Origin: Actinomycetota bacterium
GTDB taxonomy: Bacteria > Actinomycetota > Acidimicrobiia > Spongiisociales > ZC4RG35
Reading direction: 5' to 3'
Length of the DNA: 40,206 nucleotides
Assembly (NCBI GenBank): GCA_003388545.1
Contig: QQVI01000054.1
Location: 1-40,206, forward strand
In this document: piece by piece, positions 8,406 through 40,206 of the stretch
Position numbering within the stretch: position 1 is the first letter of the stretch
Layout: each line of letters begins with the position of its first letter
The notes under the pieces: model-generated
Databases searched by the model: none
The model's input: only the letters and a program-made list of their open reading frames with translations
What the model was told of the DNA's origin: nothing
Made by a program: the position numbers and the translations under genes

Positions 8406-8411
8406 TAACCT
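8406..8411 (+). promoter_or_regulatory. -10 box TAACCT of a probable leaderless promoter
   Basis: TAACCT ends seven bases before the galE ATG at 8419, inside the 27-base gap after the kinase gene; no Shine-Dalgarno sequence is present. Confidence 0.5.
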
Positions 8412-8418
8412 GCATCTG

Positions 8419-11315: not shown

Positions 11316-11322
11316 GACAATG

Positions 11323-11328
11323 ACATTA
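11323..11328 (-). promoter_or_regulatory. -10 box TAATGT of a probable leaderless promoter
   Basis: On the minus strand TAATGT ends seven bases before the ATG at 11315. The 53-base gap to the divergent amidase gene must carry both promoters. Confidence 0.45.
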
Positions 11329-11368
11329 CCGTGCACTCGATGTTGCAAGACCCTCGCCTCTTGATCCC

Positions 11369-12993: not shown

Positions 12994-12999
12994 GGTCCC

Positions 13000-13005
13000 A
13001 TCGTA
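13000..13005 (-). promoter_or_regulatory. -10 box TACGAT of a probable leaderless promoter
   Basis: On the minus strand TACGAT ends six bases before the PEBP ATG at 12993 and overlaps the space just after the upstream gene's stop region. Confidence 0.5.
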
Positions 13006-13012
13006 CGCGTGG

Positions 13013-13795: not shown

Positions 13796-13803
13796 CGACT
13801 CCC

Positions 13804-13809
13804 ACGCTA
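13804..13809 (-). promoter_or_regulatory. -10 box TAGCGT of a probable leaderless promoter
   Basis: On the minus strand TAGCGT ends eight bases before the ATG at 13795, within the 26-base gap after the serine hydrolase gene. Confidence 0.4.
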
Positions 13810-13821
13810 CTGGCCAGGGCG

Positions 13822-14781: not shown

Positions 14782-14798
14782 TATGGAGTGTCCGCCGA

Positions 14799-18454: not shown

Positions 18455-18463
18455 CGGAATACA

Positions 18464-18469
18464 AGGCTA
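18464..18469 (-). promoter_or_regulatory. -10-like box TAGCCT upstream of the exporter
   Basis: On the minus strand TAGCCT ends nine bases before the exporter ATG at 18454; spacing is at the long end of the leaderless pattern seen elsewhere. Confidence 0.35.
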
Positions 18470-18522
18470 CGCCGTCAGGGTGCCAAACCCAATGTCGGCG
18501 GCCCGTTGCAGCCCCGGGTCGA

Positions 18523-21024: not shown

Positions 21025-21034
21025 GGCTACTCCG

Positions 21035-22447: not shown

Positions 22448-22455
22448 GGTTCCTC

Positions 22456-24587: not shown

Positions 24588-24602
24588 GTGGGTCTCCAAT
24601 CT

Positions 24603-24618
24603 CCGGGTGAGAACCCGG
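24603..24618 (-). promoter_or_regulatory. Small hairpin upstream of the ureidopropionase ribosome binding site
   Basis: Inverted repeat CCGGGT and ACCCGG separated by four bases. In the minus-strand mRNA it forms a 6-bp GC stem with a UCUC loop, about ten bases before the GGAG site. It could shield the site, mark an mRNA end after processing, or be incidental. Confidence 0.4.
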
Positions 24619-24648
24619 CACTACTCAAAACTTAGCCAAGAACAAGGA

Positions 24649-24678
24649 TACGGGAGCAAGCGTCAGCTTGCCCCCGTA
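24649..24678 (-). other. Long hairpin between transport and catabolic halves of the operon
   Basis: Arms TACGGGAGCAAGC (24649-24661) and GCTTGCCCCCGTA (24666-24678) pair over 13 positions with one A/C mismatch and a four-base loop. No U-run follows on the minus strand, so it is not a typical intrinsic terminator; a stabilising element for the binding-protein mRNA or a partial terminator is more likely. Confidence 0.5.
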
Positions 24679-24702
24679 CCTCAGTTGCGGATCGAAAGGG
24701 CC

Positions 24703-25869
24703 TTACTCTCCGCCCGGCCGGAGTTCGATGTCGCGACGCTCGTATGAGGCGCCAGTGACGTCGAGCCCCTCGGCTTCCAGCTCATCGACCGCCTGTTGGG
24801 CGAGATCGGTGCGGTAGGCGTCGTCGGAGCTCGTGACGCCTTGCAGCTCTTCGACCACAGCGGTTCCTACCTCGACCGTTTGATCCCAAAGCGACTCGTT
24901 CATGACGCCGATGCCGTTGGTGGCCGGGAAGATCAGGGCCAGGATTTCGTTGAGCTGCCATGCCTGGTGGCTCTCCCCAAGAGTCGAGCCGTTTTCGAGG
25001 ACGATCTCGACGCACTCGTCGAAGTTGTCCAGACAGTGGATCCAGCCACGGAATGTCGCCTTGAGGAACCGGACCGCTATGTCTTCGTTGCCTTCTTCGG
25101 CGATCCATTCGGCGTTGACCCATATTGCGTCCTGGAGCATCGCTGTTGCGACGTCAGGATCGTTGAAGTCGATGACGTTGAGATCTTCCGGCTGATACAG
25201 CTCGCCCGTCTCAGGATTCTCAGCCTCGAGCACCTGGGCGTATTCGTTGTAGATCATCGCCTCAGCGGCGTCGATCTCGCCGTTGAGCAGTGCGAGCATG
25301 TCGAAGTTCTGGCCCACCAACTCCACGTCCTGGACGTCGAATTTGTTGATAGCGCCGGTCAGCTCGTACTCGTTGCCGAAGCCCCAGTTGCCGACCGTCT
25401 TCCCCTCCCAATCGGTCGGATGGGTGATTCCCTGCTCCACGAACGAAACAGAGAGCGTCCCGGAACGCTCGAACACCTGGGCGATATTGATGATCTCGGC
25501 TCCCTGCTCCCGGGAGACGAGGGCCTTGGGCACCCAAGCGATCCCGAACTCGGCACCGCCCGTGGCGAGGACCGTTTGAGGCACGATTTCGACTGCTCCC
25601 TCGAGAATCTCGACGTTGAGGCACTCGTCTTCATAGAACCCGAGATCCTGCGCTACGAAGTAGCCCGCGAACTGTGACTGCGCCACCCACTGGAGTTGGA
25701 CCCTCACGTCATCGGGCTCGGTGCACTCTCCATCCGGTGCAGAGGTATCCGGGGACGTGGTGTCCGGGGATGTCGTATCCGCCCCTGTGTCATCGCCGCA
25801 AGCGGTGAGTACCAATCCGATCACGGCGAGGAGGGCCAGCAGTCTCTTCCATCTGTTGTTCAGCTTCAC
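24703..25869 (-). CDS. ABC transporter substrate-binding lipoprotein, NMT1/THI5-like (NitT/TauT class)
   Basis: A 388-residue periplasm-facing binding protein. The signal ends in LTAC (Cys24) followed by a linker made of repeats of Thr-Thr-Ser-Pro-Asp. The mature domain begins VRVQLQWVAQSQFAGYFVAQDLGFYEDECLNVEIL, a classic NMT1/THI5 opening used to bind pyrimidine precursors, riboflavin, nitrate or sulfonates. Start GTG at 25869 has AAAGGAGA five bases upstream. It sits between the permease genes and the pyrimidine-breakdown enzymes, so uracil, thymine, a dihydropyrimidine or an aminopyrimidine is the likely ligand. The binding protein is often made in excess, which the hairpin downstream could support. 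Confidence 0.9.
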   Translation of the reverse strand: MKLNNRWKRLLALLAVIGLVLTACGDDTGADTTSPDTTSPDTSAPDGECTEPDDVRVQLQWVAQSQFAGYFVAQDLGFYEDECLNVEILEGAVEIVPQTVLATGGAEFGIAWVPKALVSREQGAEIINIAQVFERSGTLSVSFVEQGITHPTDWEGKTVGNWGFGNEYELTGAINKFDVQDVELVGQNFDMLALLNGEIDAAEAMIYNEYAQVLEAENPETGELYQPEDLNVIDFNDPDVATAMLQDAIWVNAEWIAEEGNEDIAVRFLKATFRGWIHCLDNFDECVEIVLENGSTLGESHQAWQLNEILALIFPATNGIGVMNESLWDQTVEVGTAVVEELQGVTSSDDAYRTDLAQQAVDELEAEGLDVTGASYERRDIELRPGGE

Positions 25870-25932
25870 TCTTTCTCCTTTGTGCGTTCCAGCGATTGTC
25901 GAAGGGTATCCAAAGTCCGGCTCACATGTTGC

Positions 25933-26760
25933 TCAGCCTGCCTCGGTCGCCCGGAGGGACACGTGCCAAGACATCACGAGTCTCTCGGCGCCCAGGATGA
26001 TCCCATAGAAGGCGATGCCTATCGCAGAGGCCACGAGTATCGCTGCCCAAGCATCGGGAAATACGAACAGGTTGGCTTTGGCGATGATGTATTGCCCAAG
26101 CACGTCTTGGGGCCCTCCGAAGTACTCGGCCACGATCGCCGCAATGATCGACAGTGTCGATGCCACTTTCAGAGCGCTGAAGAAGTAGGGGAGGGCGCTG
26201 GGGATCCGCACCTTCGTAAAAAGCTCGCGCGGGGTCGCGGCAAAGGACCGCATCAGCTCCAGCTCGCCCGTCCCGACTTCGGTGAGGCCGCGCACCGTAT
26301 TGATCATGACGGGGAAGAAGACGACTATGGCTACCACCGTCATCTTCGACACAGGGCTGGTCACCGGGAACATGTTGTTGGCGATGGGGGCAAGAGCGAT
26401 GATCGGCATCGCGTTGGTCGCGATAGCGAACGGAAGAATGCCTTCGCGAGCAGCCTCCCACCGCACTGAGATGAGGGCCACGGTCACTCCCAGCACGACG
26501 CCTGCAGTGAGACCACCGATGACCTCGATCATGGTGTTGCCGGCCGCGCTCATTATCACCGACCATTGATCAACGAGCCGGGAACCGATCTCGGAAGGCG
26601 CGGGCAGGACGAAGGACTCGACATCGAATGCCCTGATCAAGCCCTCCCACGCAACGAGCCCGAGAACGAAGAGGACTGCCGCAGGAACATGCTTGCGCAG
26701 ACGGTGTCGCAACTCGGATGTCCTGGTGGCTTCGCGGGCTGCCGGCTTTGTATCAGTCAT
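25933..26760 (-). CDS. ABC transporter permease (BPD_transp_1), second of two
   Basis: A 275-residue inner-membrane permease with about six helices (VPAAVLFVLGLVAWEGL near residue 30, then several hydrophobic stretches). The EAA loop is ELMRSFAATPRELFTKVRIPSALPYFFSALKVASTLSIIAAIVAEYFGG, typical of the NitT/TauT/ThiX permeases. It overlaps the ATPase gene by ATGA and is followed after 63 bases by the binding-protein gene. It differs clearly from the first permease in the operon, so the channel is probably a heterodimer. Confidence 0.88.
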   Translation of the reverse strand: MTDTKPAAREATRTSELRHRLRKHVPAAVLFVLGLVAWEGLIRAFDVESFVLPAPSEIGSRLVDQWSVIMSAAGNTMIEVIGGLTAGVVLGVTVALISVRWEAAREGILPFAIATNAMPIIALAPIANNMFPVTSPVSKMTVVAIVVFFPVMINTVRGLTEVGTGELELMRSFAATPRELFTKVRIPSALPYFFSALKVASTLSIIAAIVAEYFGGPQDVLGQYIIAKANLFVFPDAWAAILVASAIGIAFYGIILGAERLVMSWHVSLRATEAG

Positions 26761-27530
26761 TGCCGATCACCTCTGCGCAACGACTCGCGGACCTCTGTGA
26801 TCTTGTCGTAGTAGGCGGCCGATTCCCTCGTGTCCACAGTGCGCGGATAGGGAAGCTGGGTCTCGATTCGATCGGTGATCCGCCCGGGCCGCGCCGACAT
26901 GACGATTACTCGCGTCGAGAGAAATACGGCTTCGGGAATCGAATGTGTGACGAATACGACGGTGGTGTGCGTCTGTTGCCAGAGACGCAGCACTTCTTGC
27001 TGCATCAGCTCGCGAGTCATCTCATCGAGTGCTCCGAAAGGCTCGTCCATCAGCAACAGCGACGGCTCGAACGCCAACGCACGCGCTATCGCGACACGCT
27101 GCTGCATGCCGCCGGAGAGCTGCCAGGGGTAGTGCTTGGCGAAGTCGGAGAGCTGAACCAGGTCGAGCATCGACGCGGCTCGCTCTGAGCGGGCTTCCTC
27201 GTCCATAATCTCGAGAGGCAACTCGACGTTCTTTGTAACCGTTCTCCAATCGAGGAGCGTGGCCTTCTGGAACACGATCCCGTAATCGCGGTCCAGTCGG
27301 GCTTGCTGGGGCGACTTTCCGTTGACGGTGAGCTCTCCTGACGAGGCCGGGACGAGGTCGCCGATCAGCCGGAGAAGGGTGCTCTTGCCACAGCCCGAGG
27401 GCCCGATCAGGGAGACGAATTCACCACTTTCGATGTCGAGATCGATACCTCGAAGTGCCTCGACGCGATCCGAGCCCTTCCCGAAGGTCTTGCCCAAGTT
27501 GCGGGCACGTACGACAGGCGAATCGCTCAT
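26757..27530 (-). CDS. ABC transporter ATP-binding protein (NitT/TauT class)
   Basis: This 257-residue ATPase energises pyrimidine-type import. Walker A is GPSGCGKST (43-51), the Q-loop region reads FQKATLLDWRTVTKNVELPLEI as in nitrate/taurine systems, the signature is LSGGMQQRV, Walker B is LLLMDEPFGALDE and the switch His is in FVTHSIPEAV. All catalytic residues are present. Four-base ATGA overlaps on both sides tie it to the two permeases. Confidence 0.93.
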   Translation of the reverse strand: MSDSPVVRARNLGKTFGKGSDRVEALRGIDLDIESGEFVSLIGPSGCGKSTLLRLIGDLVPASSGELTVNGKSPQQARLDRDYGIVFQKATLLDWRTVTKNVELPLEIMDEEARSERAASMLDLVQLSDFAKHYPWQLSGGMQQRVAIARALAFEPSLLLMDEPFGALDEMTRELMQQEVLRLWQQTHTTVVFVTHSIPEAVFLSTRVIVMSARPGRITDRIETQLPYPRTVDTRESAAYYDKITEVRESLRRGDRQ

Positions 27531-28390
27531 CCCGTCGCTCTTCCCGTCATCAGCTCCACTTCGAAGTCACGGCTGCCGGCTGCGAGTGTCTTTCTCTCGA
27601 CCAATGTCACGACTGTCACGAAGATGACACCGACGAGCGCCGTGACGATCACGGTTGCGTAGAGCTTCACGGACCGGGCGCCGAACTGCTGGGAGAAGGT
27701 GAGCAGCGCTCGCCCCAGGCCGTCACCGAAACCTGCCGGCAGCTCGCCGATGAGGGCGCCGATCACGCTCGCAGTCGCGGAGACTTTCAAGGCCGTGAAA
27801 ATATACGGAAGGGCCGATGGAACCTGCAACTTCCAGAGCACTTCTCTCGGCTTGGCGGCGTAAGAGCGCATCAGCTCGAGTGCCGTGGGGTCAGGAGACT
27901 TGAGGCCCCTGAGGGTGTTGATGGCCACGGGGAAGAAGGTCAGGTATGCCGAGATGACTGCGACCGACAGCCACTGGGGGAAGTCGAGGCGGCCACCCCA
28001 TACGACGACCATCGGGGCGATGGCGATGATTGGGATCGTCTGGCTGGCAACCACGTAAGGCATGAACGAGCGCTCCAGCAATGTCGACCTCACGAACAGG
28101 ACGCTGAGCGCAAAACCGAAGATGCCCCCGATCACGAACCCTAGGAAGGCTTCTCGCAGCGTGAAGAAAGATCTTGCTGCCAGGTCGAGGATCAACAGGT
28201 CGCCTCCACGCCTCACGGGGCGGAACAACTCGATGATCATGTCCCAGACATGGGGCATGGTCGTGTTGTCTGGCCGCACGGGCCGGATCCAGCCCATTTG
28301 CAGCCAGATGAGCTTGTACCCCTCCCAGATGGCGATCAAGACGAAAGTGACGACGATGAAGGAGAGCACGCGCCGCCATCTGCTACTCAT
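27527..28390 (-). CDS. ABC transporter permease (BPD_transp_1), first of two
   Basis: A 287-residue membrane permease. The first helix is VLSFIVVTFVLIAIWEGYKLIW, and the EAA loop LELMRSYAAKPREVLWKLQVPSALPYIFTALKVSATASVIGALIGELPAG fits the NitT/TauT family. First membrane gene of the pyrimidine operon. ATG at 28390 is chosen; GTG at 28411 is an alternative that would add seven residues (MVEAGRT). A promoter-like TAGAGT box and a possible 12-codon leader ORF that ends on top of this ATG lie just upstream. Confidence 0.87.
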   Translation of the reverse strand: MSSRWRRVLSFIVVTFVLIAIWEGYKLIWLQMGWIRPVRPDNTTMPHVWDMIIELFRPVRRGGDLLILDLAARSFFTLREAFLGFVIGGIFGFALSVLFVRSTLLERSFMPYVVASQTIPIIAIAPMVVVWGGRLDFPQWLSVAVISAYLTFFPVAINTLRGLKSPDPTALELMRSYAAKPREVLWKLQVPSALPYIFTALKVSATASVIGALIGELPAGFGDGLGRALLTFSQQFGARSVKLYATVIVTALVGVIFVTVVTLVERKTLAAGSRDFEVELMTGRATG

Positions 28391-28421
28391 GGTTCTGCCG
28401 GCCTCCACCACTCCTGTCCAT
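28383..28421 (-). CDS. Possible 12-residue leader peptide overlapping the permease start
   Basis: ATG at 28421 follows TAGAGT by eight bases, the same leaderless layout seen at other starts in the window. It would encode MDRSGGGRQNHE and stop with TAG seven bases inside the permease gene (stop 28383-28385, permease ATG 28388-28390). It could couple translation into the permease. It may also be a chance ORF with the permease starting at GTG 28411. Confidence 0.3.
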   Translation of the reverse strand: MDRSGGGRQNHE

Positions 28422-28429
28422 GGCGAGCG

Positions 28430-28435
28430 ACTCTA
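28430..28435 (-). promoter_or_regulatory. -10 box TAGAGT of the pyrimidine operon
   Basis: On the minus strand TAGAGT precedes the leader ATG by eight bases and the permease ATG by 39 bases. It is the only good -10 candidate ahead of the nine-gene operon. No convincing -35 box was found. Confidence 0.45.
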
Positions 28436-28512
28436 ACGGCGCCCGACCGACCGCCCCCCGTAAAGCAACGCTTTCCATTGTGCAGGGCCGTTTTGCGTGC
28501 GAAGCTAGAGCT

Positions 28513-28692
28513 ATGTCGCAGCCAACCGGTTTCGAATACAAGGCCCACAAGAACGGCTCCGTTGTGATCAAGCACAACGGGAAGAAGGCCACGGTCCTTC
28601 GAGGCGAGCGAGCCCAGAAGTTTCTTCGTCGGGTCGAGTCACGCGACCCCCAAGAAGTGATGGCACGGATAACCGGGAACTACAAGCGCTAA
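28513..28692 (+). CDS. Small conserved-looking hypothetical protein
   Basis: A 59-residue, strongly basic protein (MSQPTGFEYKAHKNGSVV ... KFLRRVESRDPQEVMARITGNYKR). The pattern FEYKAHKNGSVVIKHNGKKATVLRG looks like a compact beta sheet followed by a helix, and I recall similar short actinobacterial proteins of unknown function. Its high Lys/Arg content suggests nucleic-acid binding, but nothing proves that. ATG at 28513 is preferred over the longer frame to 28420. It lies alone between the divergent operon and the convergent leuA gene, 14 bases from the leuA stop. Confidence 0.7.
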   Translation: MSQPTGFEYKAHKNGSVVIKHNGKKATVLRGERAQKFLRRVESRDPQEVMARITGNYKR

Positions 28693-28706
28693 CCCTGACG
28701 GGTGCG

Positions 28707-30485
<1,779 letters not shown>

Positions 30486-30518
30486 CTACATGAGGAGAAG
30501 GAGAGCGGAGTGCGTCAT
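30486..30518 (-). CDS. leuL: leuA leader peptide MTHSALLLLM
   Basis: A ten-residue ORF on the minus strand with four Leu codons in a row (CTC CTT CTC CTC) before Met and a TAG stop. It sits between a promoter and a terminator upstream of leuA. Ribosome stalling at the Leu codons when charged Leu-tRNA is scarce would favour an antiterminator and let leuA be transcribed. Such leaders are known for leuA in other actinobacteria. Start ATG at 30518; a weak purine stretch (GTGAAG) precedes it. Confidence 0.85.
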   Translation of the reverse strand: MTHSALLLLM

Positions 30519-30534
30519 GTTCTTCACACCGAAC

Positions 30535-30563
30535 ACTCTAGGCCCATCGAGCACCTGCCACAA
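30535..30563 (-). promoter_or_regulatory. Promoter of the leuL-leuA transcript
   Basis: On the minus strand TTGTGG (30563-30558), a 17-base spacer and TAGAGT (30540-30535). The predicted start is about ten bases before the leader ATG at 30518. It falls in the 65-base gap after the GNAT gene. Confidence 0.55.
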
Positions 30564-30583
30564 GCAAAGGACATCGGTTGGCT

Positions 30584-31282
30584 TCATCCAGAAAGGTCGG
30601 CCAGCACGTCACTCAGCGACCTGACTTGGAGACCGTCCCGATCGAAGTTGTCGGGTTCCAGCCACGTCTCGAAAGCCGACCTGATCCGGGGCCACTCTTC
30701 GTCGACGATCGCGTACCAGGCCGTGTCGCGATTGCGACCCTTGTAGTGAGTGGCCTTGCGGAATGTGCCTTCATAGGTGAAGCCGAGGCGTTGGGCTGCT
30801 CGCCGCGATGGTTCATTGAGGGCATCGCATTTCCACTCACAACGCCGATATCCAGTCTGAAAAGCACGATCGATCATCATGAAAATGGCCTCGGTTGCGG
30901 CGGTCGTCCTCTGCAACACCTCAGAGAACACGATGGAGCCGATCTCGAGCACGCCAGAAGGCGGGTCGATGCGGAGATAGGAGGCAAACCCGACGGGTTT
31001 CGACCCAACGACGATCGCATAAGGGAGCCATCCGTCCGCTTCGATGAGCTCGACGAGAGTCTGCTCGAGATCCGCGACGGACGGGAATGGCCCAAACGAC
31101 ATGTATGTCCATAGCGACTCTGGAGACGTCACGAGACTCTCGAAGAGAGCCGGGGCATGCGATTCGGAGAGTGGCTCGAGCACCACGTGGCTTCCCTGCA
31201 TCAAGGTGGGGGAGGGGAACTGCGGCGGTGTCCAGTCTCCTAGAGGGTCGCCAATTGGCTGGCCGAGCTCGTTCTCAGTCAT
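30584..31282 (-). CDS. GNAT family N-acetyltransferase (RimJ/RimL-like)
   Basis: A 232-residue acetyltransferase. LEPLSESHAPALFESLV is the RimJ/RimL-type opening, GSKPVGFASYLRIDPPSGVLEIGSIVFSE is the central sheet and acetyl-CoA region, and EWKCDALNEPSRRAAQRLGFTYEGTFRKATHYKGRNRDTAWYAI is the standard C-terminal block of the RimJ/RimL type. The target is probably a small molecule or a protein N-terminus. ATG at 31282 overlaps the end of the crotonase gene by 8 bases, so the longer frame to 31525 is rejected. Last gene of the minus-strand set that starts at 33165. Confidence 0.88.
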   Translation of the reverse strand: MTENELGQPIGDPLGDWTPPQFPSPTLMQGSHVVLEPLSESHAPALFESLVTSPESLWTYMSFGPFPSVADLEQTLVELIEADGWLPYAIVVGSKPVGFASYLRIDPPSGVLEIGSIVFSEVLQRTTAATEAIFMMIDRAFQTGYRRCEWKCDALNEPSRRAAQRLGFTYEGTFRKATHYKGRNRDTAWYAIVDEEWPRIRSAFETWLEPDNFDRDGLQVRSLSDVLADLSG

Positions 31283-32099
31283 CGTGGTCCTCGAAGGTGC
31301 CATGTCGTCCGGCGCCCCGAGCAAAACGACCGGCGCCTGCGATACCCTCGGCAGCCAGCACAGGAGAACTGATCTCCCACTCTTGTGCCATTGCGGCAAG
31401 CCGGGGCAGACCGTGCTGGCTGCGCACCGACTCCCTATCGGACCGCAGGCACTCTTGGGGGAAACGCGCGATGTCAGCGGCGAGATCCTCCGCCCGCTCC
31501 CGACTCTCGCCGTCTTCGATGACATACTCAGCGAGACCTATTCGAAGACACTCTTCGGCCATCACCTGTCTGCCGGTCAGTATCAGATCGAGGGCTCTTC
31601 CCTCTCCGACGAGTCGAGGGAGCCTGACCGTTCCGCCGTCGATAAGGGGTACTCCCCAGCGCCGGCAATAGACACCCATATACGCGCTCTCTTCCATGAC
31701 CCGGATGTCACACCAGAGCGCCAGCTCCATCCCTCCGGCCACAGCGGGCCCTGCGATTGCAGCTATGACAGGTTTTGAGAGCTCGAGCCGTGTCGGGCCC
31801 ATCGGGCCGGTTGGCAGGCCAAACCCGTCGACGCTCTCTTCAAGCGATCCCGGAGGGAAGTCGAGATCCGCCAAAGGTCGTTTCTCGTCGAGCCGGCTGG
31901 CAGCCTTCAGGTCGTATCCGGAGCAGAACGATCCCCCCTCGCCCCAGAAGACGGCCACCAAAGCCGTTTCGTCCTGATCAAACTCGGTGAAGGCTTGTCG
32001 TAGTTCCTCGGCAGCAGTGGGATCTACTGCGTTTCGCGCCTCGGGGTTGGAGTTGATGACCGTCCAGACCGGCCCGGACCTTTCGACTCGTATAGACAT
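31275..32099 (-). CDS. Enoyl-CoA hydratase/isomerase family protein (crotonase)
   Basis: A 274-residue crotonase-fold protein. The oxyanion-hole loops are CSGYDLKAASR and PAVAGGMELALWCDIRVMEESAYMG. Of the two catalytic Glu positions, one is in the CDIRVMEE region while the second reads PLIDGGTVRLPRLVG with Asp in place of the classical Glu, so hydratase activity is uncertain; many family members with such sites act as isomerases, hydrolases or dehydratases. The gene lies 4 bases after the AhpD-like gene and overlaps the GNAT gene, giving a three-gene set with no clear pathway. Confidence 0.85.
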   Translation of the reverse strand: MSIRVERSGPVWTVINSNPEARNAVDPTAAEELRQAFTEFDQDETALVAVFWGEGGSFCSGYDLKAASRLDEKRPLADLDFPPGSLEESVDGFGLPTGPMGPTRLELSKPVIAAIAGPAVAGGMELALWCDIRVMEESAYMGVYCRRWGVPLIDGGTVRLPRLVGEGRALDLILTGRQVMAEECLRIGLAEYVIEDGESRERAEDLAADIARFPQECLRSDRESVRSQHGLPRLAAMAQEWEISSPVLAAEGIAGAGRFARGAGRHGTFEDHDD

Positions 32100-32103
32100 C
32101 GGC

Positions 32104-33165
32104 TCACTTTCGCAGCTTCCGAATCACGCGACGGATCATCCCCGGCCTTTCGCGCTCGGTCGTCAAACCGGCGTGTGGGAACTCGAGGACTCCGAGGTCG
32201 CTCAGCAACGGTCGCATGCGTTCCCGCTGCCTGGTGAGAGCGGGTTGACCTGTCGCCTCGACGATCCGATTGATCATCATGAAGCAGGCCGCTACCTCCG
32301 CTGCCGTTACGGCCGCGGGTTGACCGACTTCTCGGGCCAAGTTGGTCACGGTCGACGGATCCGGTCTGGGACTGACGGCCGACCTTGCCATTGCCACGAG
32401 CTGAGCCCCTCCCTTGACCCCAGTATCCTGATCCGGGTCGACGATTCCACCCATCTGCAGTGTCACTCCCTCCCGATCGGCAGCCGCTCTCAGTGCGGTC
32501 AGGTGGCCGAGAGTGCAGTAGAAGCAGCGATTCCCGTATGAGACGGTGGACACGACAAGCTCGAGTTGGGTATGAGAAAGCCCCCGTATCGACCGCGAAG
32601 AGTGGCGATCATCCTGGGGCTTGTACATCCGATCGAGAATGAGGTTTGCCACCCTCTGGGTTCGCGGCACCGCGCTGAGCGCGAATCGCGGCAAGGGCAG
32701 TCCGGTGGTCGGGACCCACGCCTTTCTCATACGCAATGAGCTCACTTCACCGACCTCGGATGGCTTGCCAGCCGATGGCTGGGGGAGTGGCGCTGGTTCC
32801 AGTCCCAGCAGCTGCTGAAAGACATCGATGCCGATGACGATCGAGACCCAGCCCACTAGCTCGACGTATCTCACTACTCCCAGGTAGTCGGTCGCTGCGC
32901 TGGCAAGTTCGCGATCGATTTCGGCTGGGGCGTTCACCATGAGGTGGACCAGATCGACCGTCTTTCCACTGAGGGCCTGGCTGGATGGCTTCTCTCCCGA
33001 AGCCCTTGATTGCCTAGCGGCAGCAGCTAGTCCTACCTTCTCGAACGCCGTCCAGCCGTTTCCCGGCCTTGCGAGCTCCTCCCACGTTGTCTTGAACAAG
33101 GCAGTCAGATCCGCTGGCACGGGCATGGCCGCGCCTGAGTAGTCGAATAGTTGGTCTCCGCCCAC
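32104..33165 (-). CDS. AhpD-like / carboxymuconolactone decarboxylase family protein
   Basis: A 353-residue protein with the AhpD/CMD signature in the C-terminal half: SYGNRCFYCTLGHLTALRAA with Cys214-x-x-Cys217 and His221, the redox centre of alkylhydroperoxidase-like proteins. The N-terminal half (about 60-120) has the helical look of a second, cysteine-free copy, so a duplicated domain is possible. GTG at 33165 is supported by TAGTGT six bases upstream. It leads the operon with crotonase and GNAT genes. A peroxide-detoxifying role is inferred from the CxxC only. Confidence 0.8.
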   Translation of the reverse strand: MGGDQLFDYSGAAMPVPADLTALFKTTWEELARPGNGWTAFEKVGLAAAARQSRASGEKPSSQALSGKTVDLVHLMVNAPAEIDRELASAATDYLGVVRYVELVGWVSIVIGIDVFQQLLGLEPAPLPQPSAGKPSEVGEVSSLRMRKAWVPTTGLPLPRFALSAVPRTQRVANLILDRMYKPQDDRHSSRSIRGLSHTQLELVVSTVSYGNRCFYCTLGHLTALRAAADREGVTLQMGGIVDPDQDTGVKGGAQLVAMARSAVSPRPDPSTVTNLAREVGQPAAVTAAEVAACFMMINRIVEATGQPALTRQRERMRPLLSDLGVLEFPHAGLTTERERPGMIRRVIRKLRK

Positions 33166-33171
33166 GGAGCC

Positions 33172-33177
33172 ACACTA
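33172..33177 (-). promoter_or_regulatory. -10 box TAGTGT of a probable leaderless promoter
   Basis: On the minus strand TAGTGT ends six bases before GTG 33165. No ribosome binding site precedes that start. Confidence 0.5.
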
Positions 33178-33245
33178 CTTCCGACCACGCACTGTGCTCG
33201 CGCTGCCGGCGATGACGGCGCTCTGTGCCCTACCTCTCGGCGACC

Positions 33246-33614
33246 TCAGCCGTCGGCCTTGATGTTCCTCCACATGCCCATTTCGAAGTGGTCGACTATC
33301 GAACCGTCCGGCGTTTGCGTCACCAGACGGCAACTGACCAGATAGTCACCCGCCGAGAGATCGACGGCGAGAGACGAGCTCGCTCCAGCCGGGATGACGT
33401 CCGTGGCGGCAACGACATTCCCCTGCTGGTCGGTGACGACGAGTGTGTGAATGAATTCTCCAACATTTGAGATACGCAGAGTTTGTTGACCGGTCAGCAC
33501 ACGTTCTGGTCCAACGATGGAGCCATCGTCGAGGATGAACTCGTTAGAGGTCGAATCACTGGCGGTGCAGGCGACGGCGGCCATGAGAATCGCCAGAAGC
33601 AGCCTACCCCTCAT
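33246..33614 (-). CDS. Cupredoxin-like lipoprotein
   Basis: A 122-residue protein with a lipoprotein signal (AVAC, Cys16) and a single beta-sandwich domain. A type-1 copper ligand set is visible: His56 (GEFIHTLVV), Cys95 (LVSCRL), His109 and Met114 (DHFEMGM, H-x4-M). Between Cys and the second His there are 13 residues instead of the usual few, so the copper loop is enlarged. It should be anchored outside the membrane. It overlaps the upstream kinase gene by ATGA and so is made with it. Electron carrier, copper sensor partner or redox buffer are possible roles; none is proven. Confidence 0.72.
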   Translation of the reverse strand: MRGRLLLAILMAAVACTASDSTSNEFILDDGSIVGPERVLTGQQTLRISNVGEFIHTLVVTDQQGNVVAATDVIPAGASSSLAVDLSAGDYLVSCRLVTQTPDGSIVDHFEMGMWRNIKADG

Positions 33615-35056
33615 GCTGTCACCTTCTGCCCGGAGCGCACCCGAACCGCGGGCAACGCGATCTCGAAGGTTGTGCCGGCCGGCGAGGTCTGTACAGCGAG
33701 CGAGCCATCCAACGCGTCGACGACCATGCGTGCCATGTAGAGCCCAAGGCCGGTGCCGGAGCTGAAGCTGGACTTCTCAAACTTCTCGAAGATCCGGGGG
33801 AGGAACTCGGGGTCGATCCCTGGCCCGTCGTCGGCGACGGCTACGAAAGCCGCTGATTCGGGTCGACTGCCCACCTCCAGATCGGGACTGATCGTGGATT
33901 CTGCGGAGCACACCACATCCACCCGGTTTGCTCCGTGTGTCCGTGCGTTGTCGACCAGCGAACCCACCACGAGTTTGAGAGCGCTCAAATCGGTCTTGAT
34001 CCTCAGCTCATCTGCCTGTTGGTCGGGGGTTCTGGAAGCAGATATGAGTGCACATAGCTCTTCGATACTGTGCTCGGTCATCTCCCGGGAGAGACCGCGA
34101 TTCTCTATCCGGGCAACGGCAAGAATCTGATCGATGATCTCGAGCAACCTGTTGCCATCCTGAACCATGGAGTCGATCAGGGACGCCTTCTCGTTGTCTT
34201 CGAGATCTGCGCTGCGAACAAGCTCGGCGCCTGTGACGACGCTGGTGAGGGGAGTTCTCAACTCATGATTGATCATCAGGACGAATTCGGACCGAATCCG
34301 GATCTTCTCCTCCGCAAGCTCCAGTGCCTCTTCGGCCGCCTTGCGCGCTTCCTCGAGATCAACGTTCGTTTGCTCGAGCTCTGCTGAATGCCGTCGGAGA
34401 AAGTTCGACTCGAGCTCGATTGCCTCGTATCTCCTCGCGGTGCGACCGCGACCGAATATCGCCAGCACGCCGAGTATCGCAAAGGTGGCAGCTGCCCCTG
34501 CTAGCTGAAGTGTCGCAGGTTGCAGTTCGCCCGGTTGGGTGCGACGCCCCAGCAGCTCGGGGACGTCGTAGTGGATCAGAAGTGCGTTGCTCGCCTCCTC
34601 GATGGGATGCACTACCTGGTAGAGGACTGTTCCGGCGGGCCAGGTCTCGATGCCGTCGAGGACTATCGGGCTCTCAATCGCCAAGGCGACGGCTGTGAAC
34701 CTCTGGTTCTCGACCGCCGCTAGGAGCAGTTGGTTGCTGAGTTGATACCCGACCTTGTTGCTGGATGTGGAGGCAATGACGTTGCCGGATGCGTCTAGAA
34801 CCGACACGGCCTCGACACCCAAGTCGTTTCGAGCCACTCTCACTGCGATATCCGGATCCGCGTTCGACTCGATATGCGCGGCGGCCGTCCTGGCGTCGTT
34901 GATGAAGACGTCGCCCTCGCCAATTGGCTTCGAGGCCTCCTCCTGAACCAACACCGCCATCAAGATCGCGGCGGCTGAGAGCAAGAAGGCAAGCGCTATC
35001 AGCGCGAACCACCATCTCGATGGGCGCCGTGCAGTTGGGTGCTGTGTCTCGGACAC
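33611..35056 (-). CDS. Membrane sensor histidine kinase
   Basis: A 481-residue kinase. Membrane helices near 16-38 and 184-202 flank an extracellular sensor domain (about 39-183) that looks like a Cache/double-PAS fold (VSVLDASGNVIASTSSN). A coiled coil (about 215-255) leads into HisKA with the phosphoacceptor His264 (INHELRTPLTSV) and an ATPase domain with N box SLVDNARTHGAN, G1 DDGPGIDPEF and G2 GTGLGLYMARMVVDALDGS. All motifs are complete. No response regulator is adjacent. Start is GTG at 35056. It is translationally coupled to the cupredoxin lipoprotein, which could present copper or redox state to the sensor domain. Confidence 0.88.
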   Translation of the reverse strand: MSETQHPTARRPSRWWFALIALAFLLSAAAILMAVLVQEEASKPIGEGDVFINDARTAAAHIESNADPDIAVRVARNDLGVEAVSVLDASGNVIASTSSNKVGYQLSNQLLLAAVENQRFTAVALAIESPIVLDGIETWPAGTVLYQVVHPIEEASNALLIHYDVPELLGRRTQPGELQPATLQLAGAAATFAILGVLAIFGRGRTARRYEAIELESNFLRRHSAELEQTNVDLEEARKAAEEALELAEEKIRIRSEFVLMINHELRTPLTSVVTGAELVRSADLEDNEKASLIDSMVQDGNRLLEIIDQILAVARIENRGLSREMTEHSIEELCALISASRTPDQQADELRIKTDLSALKLVVGSLVDNARTHGANRVDVVCSAESTISPDLEVGSRPESAAFVAVADDGPGIDPEFLPRIFEKFEKSSFSSGTGLGLYMARMVVDALDGSLAVQTSPAGTTFEIALPAVRVRSGQKVTA

Positions 35057-35156
35057 ACTCCATATTTCGGCACAGGCGTGGTGTCTCTTGACCCGGAGGC
35101 GTGATTGAGCTGGCTATTCCGTGGATGTGGTCACGCCCTCTCCGAGAGGAGCTAGA

Positions 35157-35174
35157 ATGTTGAACGTTCAACAT
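35157..35174 (+). promoter_or_regulatory. Perfect 18-bp palindrome, probable operator
   Basis: ATGTTGAACGTTCAACAT reads the same on both strands. It covers the annotated ATG of the dioxygenase and overlaps a -10-like TAGAAT (35153-35158). The TTGAAC/GTTCAA half-sites look like those of MarR or TetR-type repressors. If the -10 is used, a repressor here would block RNA polymerase. In RNA it could instead form a 7-bp hairpin at the start codon. Confidence 0.65.
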
Positions 35175-36056
35175 GTGGATATGAGCATCATCAACCCACC
35201 ACAACCCGGGGCGGCTTTCGACGAGTACCTGAACAAGGACGGGGCTCTTCACAGGGCTCGACCACGATGGAAGGCCGACGACGGGCCGCTTCCCTCCATC
35301 TATCTGAGTCATGGGGCACCTCCGGTCTTTGACGACGCGCATTGGATCGGCCAGCTCTCCAGATGGGCCCTGTCGTTGCCCAAGCCTGAGGCCGTGCTCA
35401 TTATCAGCGCTCACTGGGAGAGTGCACCGGTCGCCCTTTCCGCCACAGCCGCGTCGACACCCCTGGTCTACGATTTCGGAGGCTTTGCCCCCCGGTACTA
35501 CTCGATGGAGTACCCAACTCCCGATGCGACCTCCTTGGCCGGCGAACTCCGCTCGTTGATGCCCGAGCACGTCGAGATTCATCAGCACTCGCATCGCGGG
35601 CTCGATCATGGAGCTTGGGTACCGCTCAAGGTCATGTACCCCTACGCGGATGTGCCGGTTCTCCAGATGAGCATGCCCACACACGACCCTGAACAGTTAT
35701 TCGCGTTGGGTCGTCGCCTTCGTCCGCTCCGTGACCAGGGCGTGCTCATCATTGGCTCGGGTTTCATGACCCATGGTCTCCGCTTCGCAACCAGAGAGAT
35801 GTTCTACGACAACGTGATACCCGGTTGGTCCCGGGAATTCGACCTCTGGGTGGCCGAAGCCTTGGAGGCGGGGGATCTCGACACCCTGGCCAACTATGAG
35901 CGTGCACCTGGGATGCCTTACGCTCATCCGACCGTGGAGCACTTCACTCCGTTGTTCATTGCTCTCGGTGCCGCATCCGATCCGGCGGATGCGCCGCGGA
36001 CCGTCATCGATGACTTCCAGTTCGGCTTTGCCAAGCGATCGGTTGAGTTCGATTGA
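35157..36056 (+). CDS. Class III extradiol dioxygenase (LigB/DODA, YgiD-like)
   Basis: A protein of up to 299 residues with the 4,5-DOPA-dioxygenase fold. Metal ligand candidates are His52 (YLSHGAPP), His86 (IISAHWES) and His151 (GLDHGAWVPL); SGFMTHGLR carries another conserved His. PALYDFGGFAP-type text (VYDFGGFAPRYY) and VPVLQMSMP are standard. Such enzymes open catechol-type rings or, like YgiD, are of unclear physiology. ATG 35157 has AGGAG five bases upstream, but it also lies in a -10-like box and in a palindrome; ATG 35181 is the alternative start. The region before residue 45 is longer than in usual family members. It is divergent from the kinase gene. Confidence 0.88.
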   Translation: MLNVQHVDMSIINPPQPGAAFDEYLNKDGALHRARPRWKADDGPLPSIYLSHGAPPVFDDAHWIGQLSRWALSLPKPEAVLIISAHWESAPVALSATAASTPLVYDFGGFAPRYYSMEYPTPDATSLAGELRSLMPEHVEIHQHSHRGLDHGAWVPLKVMYPYADVPVLQMSMPTHDPEQLFALGRRLRPLRDQGVLIIGSGFMTHGLRFATREMFYDNVIPGWSREFDLWVAEALEAGDLDTLANYERAPGMPYAHPTVEHFTPLFIALGAASDPADAPRTVIDDFQFGFAKRSVEFD

Positions 36057-36085
36057 CACGGACCTGACCCGGGGGAGGGGAGTGG

Positions 36086-36537
36086 CTAGTTCCTGCGGCG
36101 GTAGGACACCGTCATCGCGATGTTCCATTCGGACTCGTCGGACGAGGTCTCCCAACGCCAGACGAGACTGTCTTCTCGTCGGACGAGGTCTCCCAACGCC
36201 AGAAGAGACTGTCTTCTTCGATATCGGAGAAGACCATCCTCTTGAAGAGCTGGTCACTATCGACCCGGCCGGCCGTCGCAAAGCACGGGTCACCGTCGAC
36301 CATCTGTCCCACGAAGTTCCAATAGTTGCCACTCTGGTCGACCCAGGTCTGACGCCAGCCGTCGAGTTCTGAATACACCGACACGCTCATCCCGGTCCAT
36401 GCTTGTGGGGGCAAGATCGAGAAGCGTTCCACGAGCACCTTCCCCTCGTATTCCCGGGTCACGGTGTTGGCGGCTTTGCCGGCCTCAGTCACGCAGTCCC
36501 ACTCGCCGACCCAGAAATCGAACGCATCAGGTCCCAT
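36086..36537 (-). pseudogene. DUF1579-like gene, frameshifted by a 41-bp tandem duplication
   Basis: From ATG 36537 the frame reads FDFWVGEWDCV ... NTVTREYEGKVLVERF ... GMSVSVYSELDGWRQTWVDQSGNYWNFVGQM, the layout of DUF1579-type small beta-barrel proteins. After residue 120 it enters a tandem repeat (36135-36216) whose 41-bp period is not a multiple of three. The present frame then gives a foreign tail (KTVSSGVGRPRPTSPNGTSR, stop at 36112). Reading with one unit removed yields WRWETSSDESEWNIAMTVSYRRRN and a stop at 36086-36088, the expected end. The gene thus looks recently broken, or at least given a different C-terminus; a sequencing artefact of this size is unlikely but possible. Confidence 0.75.
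36135..36216. repeat. Two tandem 41-bp units
   Basis: Unit 1 is 36135-36175 and unit 2 is 36176-36216; both begin TCGTCGGACGAGG and end CTGTCTTC. They differ at one base (C in the first, A in the second, within CCAGA-x-GAGACTG). The single difference suggests that the duplication is recent but not brand new. It causes the frameshift in the DUF1579-like gene. Confidence 0.95.
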
Positions 36538-36581
36538 GCCTCTCTATGTCCTCGCGGTGGGGTCGGATGTCAGGATCTCCA

Positions 36582-36587
36582 TAAGAT
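36582..36587 (+). promoter_or_regulatory. -10 box TAAGAT of a probable leaderless promoter
   Basis: TAAGAT ends eight bases before ATG 36596 and no ribosome binding site intervenes. Confidence 0.45.
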
Positions 36588-36595
36588 GGATCCCG

Positions 36596-37036
36596 ATGAG
36601 CTATCACCACGTGCAATGGGGGAGGACCTGGCTTCTCTTCCTGCCGTTGTTTCTCGCAGTGGTGATCTCAACGTCGTTGTCAGGCTCTCTGACACTCACA
36701 CTTTCAACGCTCGGGTTCACGCTCGCCGTCTTCTTCGTGCTCGTCTACTTTCAGCGACTCGAGGTGGTGATCGCAGACGACGAGATTTCGGCCGCATTCG
36801 GGTTCGGGAAACCTCGGCGTTCCTACGGGATGGCCGAGATATCGGACGTGTCGCTGGTACGCACACCCTGGTGGTACGGGTTCGGCGTCAGGAAGATCCC
36901 GCATGGTTGGATGTACAACGTGTGGGGGCTCGACGGAGTAGAGCTGGAATTGGAGGATGGCAGGATCTTCAGGATCGGCACGGACGATGCTGACCGACTC
37001 TTTGGAGCGCTGGAACTCTCGCTGCCGCGAAGGTAG
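36596..37036 (+). CDS. Two-helix membrane protein with PH-like C-terminal domain
   Basis: A 146-residue protein. Two adjacent hydrophobic stretches (about 10-30 WLLFLPLFLAVVISTSL and 32-52 LTLTLSTLGFTLAVFFVLVYF) form a hairpin, followed by a cytosolic beta-rich part: LEVVIADDEISAAFGFG, PRRSYGMAEISDVSLV, and PHGWMYNVWGLDGVELELEDGRIFRIGTDD. The pattern GVRKIPHGWMYNVWG-x-x-GVEL and DGR-x-F-x-IGTDD is seen in bacterial PH-like membrane proteins of unknown function. ATG 36596 is chosen for the TAAGAT box eight bases upstream; the earlier in-frame start at 36464 overlaps the divergent DUF1579-like gene. Confidence 0.75.
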   Translation: MSYHHVQWGRTWLLFLPLFLAVVISTSLSGSLTLTLSTLGFTLAVFFVLVYFQRLEVVIADDEISAAFGFGKPRRSYGMAEISDVSLVRTPWWYGFGVRKIPHGWMYNVWGLDGVELELEDGRIFRIGTDDADRLFGALELSLPRR

Positions 37037-37064
37037 GAGCGCAGCAGCGAGACTCGTGTGAGGC

Positions 37065-37823
37065 CTAGCCCGGGGTCACCGTCTCTTCTGCATACTTCCC
37101 TACCAGCAACACGCCGACGTCGGCTTGCCCGGCGGCCAGGTTCAGGCCATCACCAGCGACTGATCCTGTCAACACGGCCGCTCGGGAATCGGAGACCGAC
37201 CGATTGTGGTACTTGAACCAGGGGAGTTCCGTGACCGAGTCTCCGAACTCGTCGTGCACTATCGGGCCCGTGCCGATCCAACTCAGTTCCATGACCACCG
37301 TTGCCGGCGGAAGCTCCTCGCAGGTGCTCACAACGCCCGCCGGGCCGTCCTCGATGCAGACATAGCCGTAGAGGGGAACAGTTAGCGAAGCTGCGGCTGA
37401 TCCCAGCTTGGGGTCGAAATCGAATGTTCCACCATGTTCGGCGGCAAAACCCTCGTACTCAGTACGTGTGACGATGCCGGTGTCCGGATCGGTGAACTCG
37501 TGGGTATAGAAGAGCGTCACCTGCGGATCGCGAAAGTGTGTCTTCCCAAAGTCACTGGATCGCGTCGTCAGATAGAAGACCTTCACTGTCAGGTCGCTGA
37601 AGGTGGTTTCGGTCTCCTCGATCCAGGCCCCACCGGCCAGCTTCACTTCCTCGCTGTAGCTCACCGACGCAGCTTCGGCAGGCGGTACGACTGCCATCAG
37701 CACTATGAGAACGGCCAATGTCGCGATGACTGCCCGGCGGAATCCGGGCCTATCCCAGCGTCGTGATGTACCGATGATCTCGAGATCTTGTGAGGCTCCC
37801 GAGGTGGAAGATGTCTTTCTCAT
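37065..37823 (-). CDS. Secreted protein of unknown function
   Basis: A 252-residue protein. A basic N-terminal region of 30 residues, a hydrophobic stretch (AVIATLAVLIVLMAVV, 31-46) and a cleavage site after PPAEA (about 51) make an export signal. The rest is beta-rich without known motifs: Thr/Ser/Asp-rich strands, WIEETETTFSDLTVKVFYLTTR, a pair of cysteines (CIEDGPAGVVSTC) that could bond, and no membrane anchor. I do not recognise a family. Neighbours give no hint. The 104-base gap to the DUF1801 gene upstream must hold divergent promoters. Confidence 0.65.
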   Translation of the reverse strand: MRKTSSTSGASQDLEIIGTSRRWDRPGFRRAVIATLAVLIVLMAVVPPAEAASVSYSEEVKLAGGAWIEETETTFSDLTVKVFYLTTRSSDFGKTHFRDPQVTLFYTHEFTDPDTGIVTRTEYEGFAAEHGGTFDFDPKLGSAAASLTVPLYGYVCIEDGPAGVVSTCEELPPATVVMELSWIGTGPIVHDEFGDSVTELPWFKYHNRSVSDSRAAVLTGSVAGDGLNLAAGQADVGVLLVGKYAEETVTPG

Positions 37824-37927
37824 CGGACGAGGGTGCGTCAGACGACTTGCAAAGGACTAGGAGGGGACTTGTCACGGCACGCGTCGGCCCGACTCGATGG
37901 CTGCTGATACCGTGAAGGCGGAGACAA

Positions 37928-38317
37928 ATGGCTGAGACCAGGTTCGGTACCTTCCAAGAGCTGCTCGAGATGACTGCGCTCGAGATGAGGCCTGTTGCCG
38001 AAGGACTGCGGAATCTCGCCTTCGAAGTGCACCCGGATGCCGTCGAGGTGGTTCGGCTGGGCGATCGTGCGGCGACATACGGGCTCGGCCCAAAAAAGAT
38101 GAGTGAGGGGTACGCCTACATCCTGCCGCACACGTCATGGGTGAACCTCGGGTTCTACCAGGGGGCAGGCTTGCCCGACCCCGACCGTCTTTTGGAGGGC
38201 ACTGGTGCACGGATGCGCCACGTCAAGGTGCATTCTGTGGAAGAAGCCAGACTCCCGGGTGTGCGTCGTCTGTTGGAAGAGGCTCTGCTCGAGCGCCGCG
38301 CCGCCCTGGAATCCTGA
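37928..38317 (+). CDS. DUF1801 domain protein (first of two)
   Basis: A 129-residue cytoplasmic protein. It has the DUF1801 layout: helical N-terminus (FQELLEMTALEMRPVAEGLRNLAFEVHPDAVEVV), a Gly/Tyr-rich centre (YGLGPKKMSEGYAYILPHTSWVNLGFYQGAGLPDP) and a C-terminal helix. Members of the family such as YdhG are small proteins, some linked to iron chaperoning; the role here is unknown. A GGAG ribosome binding site precedes ATG 37928. The next gene is of the same family although the two proteins are only distantly similar. Confidence 0.8.
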   Translation: MAETRFGTFQELLEMTALEMRPVAEGLRNLAFEVHPDAVEVVRLGDRAATYGLGPKKMSEGYAYILPHTSWVNLGFYQGAGLPDPDRLLEGTGARMRHVKVHSVEEARLPGVRRLLEEALLERRAALES

Positions 38318-38385
38318 ATGGAAGCGGATGGCCGTCGGCCGGGGGAGCCGGGGCTACAGTCCTGCGGAGCAACACTGGAATCCCG

Positions 38386-38817
38386 ATGACGACTTCTGAC
38401 ATGGCCGGCACCGAGAAGCTCGATTCTCAGGTGGCCGCCGCCTACGACTCATATGGTGAAGATGTGCGCCTCGGGTTGCTCGAGATGCGCCGGCTCATTC
38501 TCGAAACCGCCGAGGAGACCCAAGGTGTAGGTCCGATCGAAGAGTCGATCAAATGGGGACAGCCCGCCTACCGCACAGTCGAAACTGGCAGTGGCAGCAC
38601 GATCCGTCTCGCACCAGCCGGACGGGACTCGGGTTACGACTATGCGATGTACTTCATCTGCTCGACGAATCTCATAGGCCAATTCGAGGACCTCTTCGGG
38701 GACACCTTCACCTATGACGGAGAGCGGGCGCTGCTCTTCAAGATCGGTGAGCCCTGGCCCACCGACGAGCTTCGTGAGTGTGTGGCAATGGCCCTTACCT
38801 ATCACCAACGGATGTAG
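38386..38817 (+). CDS. DUF1801 domain protein (second of two)
   Basis: A 143-residue protein with an N-terminal helix (VAAAYDSYGEDVRLGLLEMRRLILETAEE), the central EESIKWGQPAYRTVETGSGSTIRLAP and the C-terminal helix DELRECVAMALTYHQRM, as in DUF1801/YdhG proteins. ATG 38386 or 38401 may be the start; a TACAGT box (38355-38360) lies about 25 bases upstream of the first. It ends 50 bases before the candidate dif site and converges with the VOC gene. Confidence 0.82.
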   Translation: MTTSDMAGTEKLDSQVAAAYDSYGEDVRLGLLEMRRLILETAEETQGVGPIEESIKWGQPAYRTVETGSGSTIRLAPAGRDSGYDYAMYFICSTNLIGQFEDLFGDTFTYDGERALLFKIGEPWPTDELRECVAMALTYHQRM

Positions 38818-38867
38818 AACCGGCGAGCAACCCAAAGGGGGGAGAACACCCAAGTCGGGATCCTCTT

Positions 38868-38895
38868 ACTTGACATAACGTGGATTATGGGCGAA
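38868..38895. other. dif: Candidate dif site (XerC/XerD recombination at the replication terminus)
   Basis: 28 bases with the dif architecture. Left arm ACTTGACATAA (38868-38878), centre CGTGGA (38879-38884), right arm TTATGGGCGAA (38885-38895). Read on the minus strand it starts TTCGCCCATAA and ends TTATGTCAAGT. The left arm matches the E. coli XerD arm (ATTTAACATAA) at 9 of 11 positions, and the right arm matches the XerC arm at 7 of 11. It lies in a convergent intergenic gap of 95 bases, where dif is usually found. The TTGACA start is a tempting -35 box, but no -10 follows at the right distance. Confidence 0.75.
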
Positions 38896-38912: not shown

Positions 38913-39289
38913 TCAGCGGTGCTGATCGATCAGGATCGCATTCCCATCGGGATCGGTCAGTGTGAAACTAGCCGGACCAGACTCTGAGTCTCTCCCGTTG
39001 TGTCGTTGTCCGGCTGTAGCCCTGCATCGATGAGCTCATCACGAATCTTGCGGATGTCAGTGAATTCATCGATCTCCTCGGCATCCGAGTTCCATCCCGG
39101 GTTGAAGGTCAGGATGTTCCCTTCGAACATCCCATGAAACAGCCCGATCGTGGTCGAGTCGGGACTTCTCAGGATCAGCCACGACTCTTCGTCGCCTCCG
39201 ACCGCCTCGAAACCCAGTTTCTGGTAGAAGTCTCGGGACTCGTCCATGTCGGAGACCGAAAGACTGACCGAAAACGCTCCTAGCTCCAT
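38913..39289 (-). pseudogene. VOC/glyoxalase family gene with a frameshift near its 3' end
   Basis: From ATG 39289 (with GGAAAGGA upstream) the frame encodes a small VOC protein: MELGAFSVSLSVSDMDESRDFYQKLGFEAVGG, then SWLILRSPDSTTIGLFHG. It ends abruptly at 38957 (TQSLVRLVSH). In the next frame the missing domain end follows: SGPASFTLTDPDGNAILIDQHR and a stop at 38913-38915, with the typical TDPDGN-ILIDQH. An extra AG in the minus-strand run GGAGAGAC (near 38990) restores frame if removed. Hence a recent two-base insertion, or a sequencing error, splits the gene. Metal-site residues and substrate are not clear. Confidence 0.78.
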
Positions 39290-39909: not shown

Positions 39910-40206
39910 ATGGCCACAGTGGCACTCACAAAAGAGACATTCGACGAGACGGTTCAGAACAACGACACGGTCATCGTCGACTTTTGGGCAGAGTGGTGCG
40001 GCCCTTGTCGCAGTTTTGCTCCCACCTTCGAGGCTGCGTCCGAGAAGCACGACGACATCGTGTTCGCCAAGGTCGACACCGAAGACCAGCAGGAACTGGC
40101 AATGGCGTTCGGCATTCGCTCGATACCGACGCTCATGGTGTTCAAGGAGCAGGTGATCCTCTACTCACAACCCGGTGCGTTGCCGGCCGAGATGTTCGAA
40201 GACCTC
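39910..40206 (+). CDS. trxA: Thioredoxin, 3' end beyond the window
   Basis: The first 99 residues are seen and the frame runs off the window. VIVDFWAEWCGPCRSFAPTFE carries the active-site Cys-Gly-Pro-Cys after Trp, and SIPTLMVFKE the cis-Pro loop, so this is a classical thioredoxin that reduces protein disulfides in the cytoplasm. AGGAAGG lies eight bases before ATG 39910. An ECF-type promoter upstream suggests induction by thiol-oxidative stress. The thioredoxin reductase gene is not seen. Confidence 0.92.
   Translation, partial: MATVALTKETFDETVQNNDTVIVDFWAEWCGPCRSFAPTFEAASEKHDDIVFAKVDTEDQQELAMAFGIRSIPTLMVFKEQVILYSQPGALPAEMFEDL

What the first reader, a model, noticed from the sequence alone, without database searches (positions are those of the whole stretch)
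38868..38895. A dif-like XerCD site places the window at the replication terminus
The 28-bp block has two 11-bp arms around a 6-bp centre, with ACATAA facing TTATG. On the minus strand the XerD arm is TTATGTCAAGT, which matches the form I recall for actinobacterial dif sites. It lies in the gap between convergent genes. dif marks the terminus where dimer chromosomes are resolved, so this would locate the end of replication in this genome and supply a reference for strand bias and pseudogenes around it.
Basis: partly seen in the sequence, partly recalled or inferred. Interest (0 to 1): 0.75.

Follow-up and report, generated by a model that had tools for sequence, protein, structure and literature searches.

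The report
Chromosome dimer-resolution site (dif)
The 28 bases are the single site where this uncultured actinobacterium's XerC/XerD enzymes very probably separate fused chromosome copies; that is an ordinary site, correctly spotted, and a G-rich seven-base signal (GGGGGAG) on both sides points to it in relatives across the phylum.

Summary
The finding is right. Window 38868-38895, minus strand, reads TTCGCCCATAA-TCCACG-TTATGTCAAGT: an 11-6-11 Xer site whose XerD arm is identical to the published Frankia alni dif. It is the only copy in the 93%-complete genome within 3 mismatches. The motif occurs in 63 of 99 relatives, nearly always once, with none for the reversed control. Conservation stops at the site's edges and includes bases that were not in my query. 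[quoted passage not shown]

In 14 single-contig chromosomes of the phylum the motif lies 40-49% of the circle from dnaA. GC skew cannot be tested here: the contig ends 1.3 kb past the site and skew is weak in the class. A better landmark replaced it: GGGGGAG points at dif from both sides (194:14 in 57 related loci; 15:1 in the window) and flips at dif. It is also the top dif-pointing heptamer in ten complete genomes of other classes (107:7). I read it as a candidate FtsK-orienting (KOPS-like) motif; I found no report of it in the open-access papers searched.

The dif is an ordinary new member of a known kind; the polar motif and a conserved thioredoxin neighbour are the extras.

The parts
38868..38895 (-). 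dif site, 28 bp: TTCGCCCATAA TCCACG TTATGTCAAGT
38868..38878 (-). XerD arm TTATGTCAAGT, identical to that of Frankia alni dif
   Evidence: XerD binding inferred from homology
38879..38884 (-). 6-bp centre TCCACG; outer T and G invariant in 45 related loci
38885..38895 (-). XerC arm TTCGCCCATAA; CCCATAA invariant in 45 related loci
   Evidence: XerC binding inferred from homology
1549..38844 (+). 15 GGGGGAG heptamers pointing to dif (starts 1549, 2591, 10790, 10925, 15566, 21579, 23081, 29718, 31208, 32781, 33796, 36071, 36618, 38341, 38838); one opposed copy at 20665. Candidate FtsK-orienting motif
39910..40206 (+). Thioredoxin gene (cut by contig end), conserved on the XerC-arm side of dif and reading away from it in 22 relatives
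38386..38817 (+). DUF1801 protein gene ending 50 bp before the site (start codon approximate)
38913..39289 (-). Glyoxalase-like (VOC) gene convergent to the DUF1801 gene, with a frame change near its C-terminal end
   Evidence: the C-terminal frame was read by eye

Best explanation
The 28-mer is the chromosomal dif site of an uncultured Acidimicrobiia-type actinobacterium. When homologous recombination fuses the two replicated chromosomes into a dimer, septal FtsK pumps DNA towards the terminus until the two dif copies are brought together. XerD, bound at TTATGTCAAGT, and XerC, bound at TTCGCCCATAA, then exchange strands at the edges of the 6-bp centre and restore two monomers. The GGGGGAG heptamers, which point to dif from both sides, are probably the marks that tell FtsK which way to pump. 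Shown here: sequence, single copy, conservation, presence of XerC/XerD/FtsK, position opposite dnaA in relatives, and motif polarity reversing at dif in relatives. Inferred: binding, cleavage, FtsK reading of GGGGGAG, and the terminus position in this particular genome.
For: One copy in the genome with up to 3 mismatches. Motif in 63 of 99 relatives, nearly always once, reversed-pattern control zero. Conservation ends at the site's borders, with invariant CCC, T and G that were not part of the query. XerD arm 11/11 identical to the F. alni dif that seeded actinobacterial prediction (PMC3025954). Exactly two phage-integrase-family genes: one scores best as XerD, the other best as XerC and lies between a dprA-like and a sigma-factor gene. 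FtsK with gamma domain. In 14 single-contig chromosomes the motif lies 0.40-0.49 of the circle from dnaA; uniform placement gives this with P about 2e-10, ignoring shared ancestry. GGGGGAG points to dif from both sides, XerC side 88:9 and XerD side 106:5; it is the most polar of about 3,800 heptamers tested and 15:1 in the window, with seven copies inside genes read the other way.
Against: 36 of 99 relatives had no match at 1 mismatch; incomplete assemblies and more diverged arms are likely reasons, not tested. Both recombinases score slightly below NCBI's equivalog cut-offs for XerC and XerD. The contig ends 1.3 kb past the site, so no polarity or skew switch can be seen in the window itself. 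Plain GC skew in the window and in two complete relatives is too weak to help.
Confidence: 0.97

Rival explanations
1. The site is the attachment scar of an integrative element that uses XerCD (IMEX-like) rather than, or next to, the chromosome's own dif.
For: Such elements carry dif-like sites and insert at dif (background in PMC3025954). In relative G020 two dif contigs share one flank and differ from the XerC edge of the site onward, as an insertion at dif would give.
Against: Only one copy in the genome within 3 mismatches, no second XerD arm near it, no third tyrosine recombinase, and the thioredoxin neighbour on the XerC side is the ancestral one shared with 22 relatives.
Confidence: 0.02
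2. The 28-mer is a chance palindrome or a terminator-like sequence between convergent genes.
For: It lies between convergent genes, where terminators occur.
Against: Expected chance matches in the window are 7e-6. The same sequence, including the unpaired outer arms, recurs once per genome across the order with unrelated flanks, and the arms are only partly symmetrical.
Confidence: 0.01
3. GGGGGAG polarity is a by-product of leading-strand base composition and not a guide for FtsK; the dif call stands either way.
For: G-rich leading strands are common, and related words such as GGGGAGG and AGGGGAG are polar too. No binding data exist here.
Against: GGGGGAG is far more polar (194:14) than other orders of the same bases, e.g. 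GGGGAGG 125:30, GAGGGGG 53:24, GGGGGGA 36:23, while plain GC skew is near zero. Density rises towards dif in G206 and in the window.
Confidence: 0.35

Closest known systems
Actinobacterial dif (Frankia alni dif CACGCCGATAATGCACATTATGTCAAGT, quoted in Kono et al. 2011, PMC3025954)
   Same: 23 of 28 identical; XerD arm 11/11; 11-6-11 layout; one per chromosome; near the terminus
   Different: XerC arm has CCC-ATAA where F. alni has CCG-ATAA; centre TCCACG instead of TGCACA
Escherichia coli dif/XerCD/FtsK (dif sequence from memory)
   Same: Layout, XerD arm 9/11, two recombinases, FtsK with gamma domain, G-rich polar motif pointing to dif
   Different: 18 of 28 identical; the best polar motif here is GGGGGAG, while E. 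coli KOPS GGGNAGGG is only moderately polar (118:40 in the same 57 loci)
KOPS / AIMS (strand-biased guide motifs that increase towards dif; PMC2680272, PMC5993296, PMC13342612)
   Same: Strand-biased, points to dif on both arms, switches at dif, denser near the terminus in G206 and in the window
   Different: Motif sequence is GGGGGAG; binding by FtsK not shown

Membership tests
dif site (XerCD) | 28-bp site: 11-bp XerC arm, 6-bp centre, 11-bp XerD arm, inner ATAA/TTAT palindrome | tested here: met
dif site (XerCD) | One copy per chromosome | tested here: met
   One in G000 with up to 3 mismatches; one in nearly all matching relatives. G000 is 93% complete.
dif site (XerCD) | Conserved as a site in relatives, not as flanking sequence | tested here: met
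   Information content falls to background within about two bases of the borders
dif site (XerCD) | XerC and XerD encoded in the genome | tested here: met
   Exactly two tyrosine recombinases; best equivalog scores XerD 322 bits (cut-off 329.6) and XerC 297 bits (cut-off 335), both slightly under
dif site (XerCD) | FtsK with gamma domain | tested here: met
dif site (XerCD) | Lies near the replication terminus of the same chromosome | tested here: inconclusive
   Met in 14 single-contig relatives; own genome is in 358 contigs, supported only by GGGGGAG polarity 15:1 in the window
dif site (XerCD) | Bound and recombined by XerC/XerD | not testable with these tools
   Needs in vitro binding or an excision assay
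KOPS (for GGGGGAG) | Points to dif on both arms and switches polarity at dif | tested here: met
   Both arms in relatives; only one arm is visible in the window
KOPS (for GGGGGAG) | Enriched towards the terminus | tested here: inconclusive
   G206 samples rise from 0-4 per 20 kb near ori to 4-9 near dif; window density (8.0 per 20 kb) equals the highest of 15 other contigs (mean 4.4), with 7 copies in its last 10 kb. Less clear in G129.
KOPS (for GGGGGAG) | Recognised by FtsK gamma domain and orients translocation | not testable with these tools
   Needs biochemistry

The most novel reading that the evidence does not exclude
GGGGGAG is the FtsK-orienting motif (KOPS) used across Actinomycetota, distinct from the E. 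coli GGGNAGGG, and its polarity can place and orient contigs of uncultured actinobacterial genomes relative to the terminus even where GC skew is absent.
Probability: 0.5. Interest if true: 0.5.

Novelty: new member of a known kind. Interest (0 to 1): 0.38.

Why it matters
It fixes the terminus region in a fragmented genome of a poorly cultured class, with a site that can be used to anchor and orient other assemblies. The polar heptamer found on the way gives a concrete, testable candidate for the sequence that steers FtsK in Actinomycetota. It also works as a terminus marker where GC skew fails.

Tried and rejected
Plain GC skew in the window and in two complete class members: too weak and dominated by gene direction. 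Strand-separated third-position skew: changes sign near dif in G206, weak in G129, mixed in the last 8 kb of the window. E. coli KOPS GGGNAGGG: only moderately polar here and not consistent in G129. Origin from an integrative element: rejected, see rivals. Second XerD arm near the site: none. Literature: no paper in the open-access library holds both Acidimicrobiia and dif site; papers holding GGGGGAG with dif or FtsK were unrelated; the Nolivos 2012 KOPS paper is not held, so prior reports cannot be excluded.

Full report
What is there. On the minus strand, 38895 to 38868, the window reads TTCGCCCATAA TCCACG TTATGTCAAGT. This is the 11-6-11 layout of a Xer site with the inner palindrome CATAA/TTATG. 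The window has no other match within three mismatches, and the 2.46-Mb genome (358 contigs, 93% complete) has no other copy of the 28-mer within three mismatches. An exact match to ATAA-N6-TTATGTCAAGT is expected 6.9e-6 times in the window by composition. The site lies in a 95-bp gap between convergent genes.

Conservation. 63 of 99 relatives carry the motif with at most one mismatch. Nearly all have one copy, and the reversed pattern gives none. In 45 distinct aligned loci, information content is near zero outside the site and high across it. The CCC before ATAA and the T and G at the ends of the centre are invariant although they were not part of the pattern used for the relatives, so the conservation is not only an effect of how the loci were found (a part of the loci came from an exact 21-base search, which does fix the T and G). 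The XerD arm is identical to that of the Frankia alni dif that seeded the published prediction of dif in 66 actinobacterial genomes (PMC3025954).

Machinery. The genome has exactly two phage-integrase-family genes. One scores best as XerD among the two equivalogs and follows an alanine dehydrogenase gene. The other scores best as XerC and sits between a dprA-like gene and a FliA/WhiG-type sigma factor gene (these neighbour names are from reading the sequences). Both are slightly under the equivalog cut-offs. FtsK is present with motor and gamma domains.

Position. In 14 single-contig chromosomes of the phylum, two of them from the same class, the motif lies 0.40 to 0.49 of the circumference from dnaA (12 with exact lengths). 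If placement were uniform, the chance of all 14 being that far is about 2e-10. This ignores shared ancestry, which makes the true number larger. In G374, which has three matches, I used the one with the common dif centre.

Polarity. Looking for strand-biased words in the two complete class members, I found GGGGGAG at the top. It then ranked first among about 3,800 heptamers in 57 dif loci of the window's order: 194 copies point to dif and 14 away, on both sides of the site (88:9 and 106:5). Other orders of the same bases are less polar. In the 20-kb samples spanning dif in both complete genomes, every copy left of dif is on one strand and every copy right of it on the other (2:0 and 0:8; 6:0 and 0:3). 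In the window the count is 15 to 1, and seven of the fifteen lie inside genes read in the opposite direction, so gene direction does not explain it. Fifteen other contigs of the genome have a lower mean density (4.4 against 8.0 per 20 kb) and, summed, 65 copies on the major against 21 on the minor strand. In ten complete genomes of other classes GGGGGAG is again the first heptamer, 107:7. A switch of KOPS orientation at dif is described as a hallmark of the FtsK-XerCD system (PMC13342612), and strand-biased words that increase towards the terminus are called AIMS (PMC5993296). I therefore read GGGGGAG as the likely FtsK guide motif of this phylum; that FtsK reads it is not shown.

Neighbourhood. 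A thioredoxin gene lies on the XerC-arm side of dif, reading away from it, in 22 relatives, 74 to about 3,800 bp from the site, never on the other side or in the other direction within the flanks held. In the window it starts 1,015 bp from dif. The genes on the XerD-arm side of the window had no counterparts near dif in those relatives, apart from weak histidine-kinase matches.

Limits. The contig ends 1.3 kb past dif, so no switch of any kind can be seen in the window itself. GC skew is weak in this class. The site marks dimer resolution; forks may end elsewhere nearby. Binding and recombination are untested.

Verdict. As a dif it is an ordinary new member of a known kind. The part worth taking further is GGGGGAG.

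Noticed in passing
window 1549-38844: GGGGGAG points to dif 15:1 in the window and is the most dif-directed heptamer in relatives of the order and in ten complete genomes of other classes; candidate actinobacterial KOPS.
   Followed up: yes
window 39910-40206; loci between L022 and L111: A thioredoxin gene is linked to the XerC-arm side of dif in 22 relatives, always reading away from dif.
   Followed up: yes
window 38913-39289: The glyoxalase-like gene next to dif changes frame near its C-terminus (the end DPDGNAILIDQHR lies in another frame); a real pseudogene and an assembly error cannot be told apart.
   Followed up: partly
L038 and L043 (genome G020): Two dif-bearing contigs in one MAG share the XerD-side flank but differ from the XerC edge of dif onward, as strain variants or an insertion at dif would give.
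   Followed up: partly
L042, within 30 bp after dif (dif core at 2105-2125): Directly after dif there is an inverted partial copy (CATAACGTGGAT), equal to the centre plus the start of the XerD arm read backwards.
   Followed up: no
L038, L039, L040, L043, L050: Several dif sites lie within 500 bp of a contig end, seemingly more than contig lengths suggest; assemblies may tend to break at dif.
   Followed up: no
G374:C1:2832810 and 2865361; G334:C42:105 and C58:105: Two genomes of one genus carry an extra dif-like pair ATAAGCGCGGTTATGTAAAGT; in G374 the two copies lie 32.5 kb apart in opposite orientation, away from the main dif; possibly a Xer-using element.
   Followed up: no
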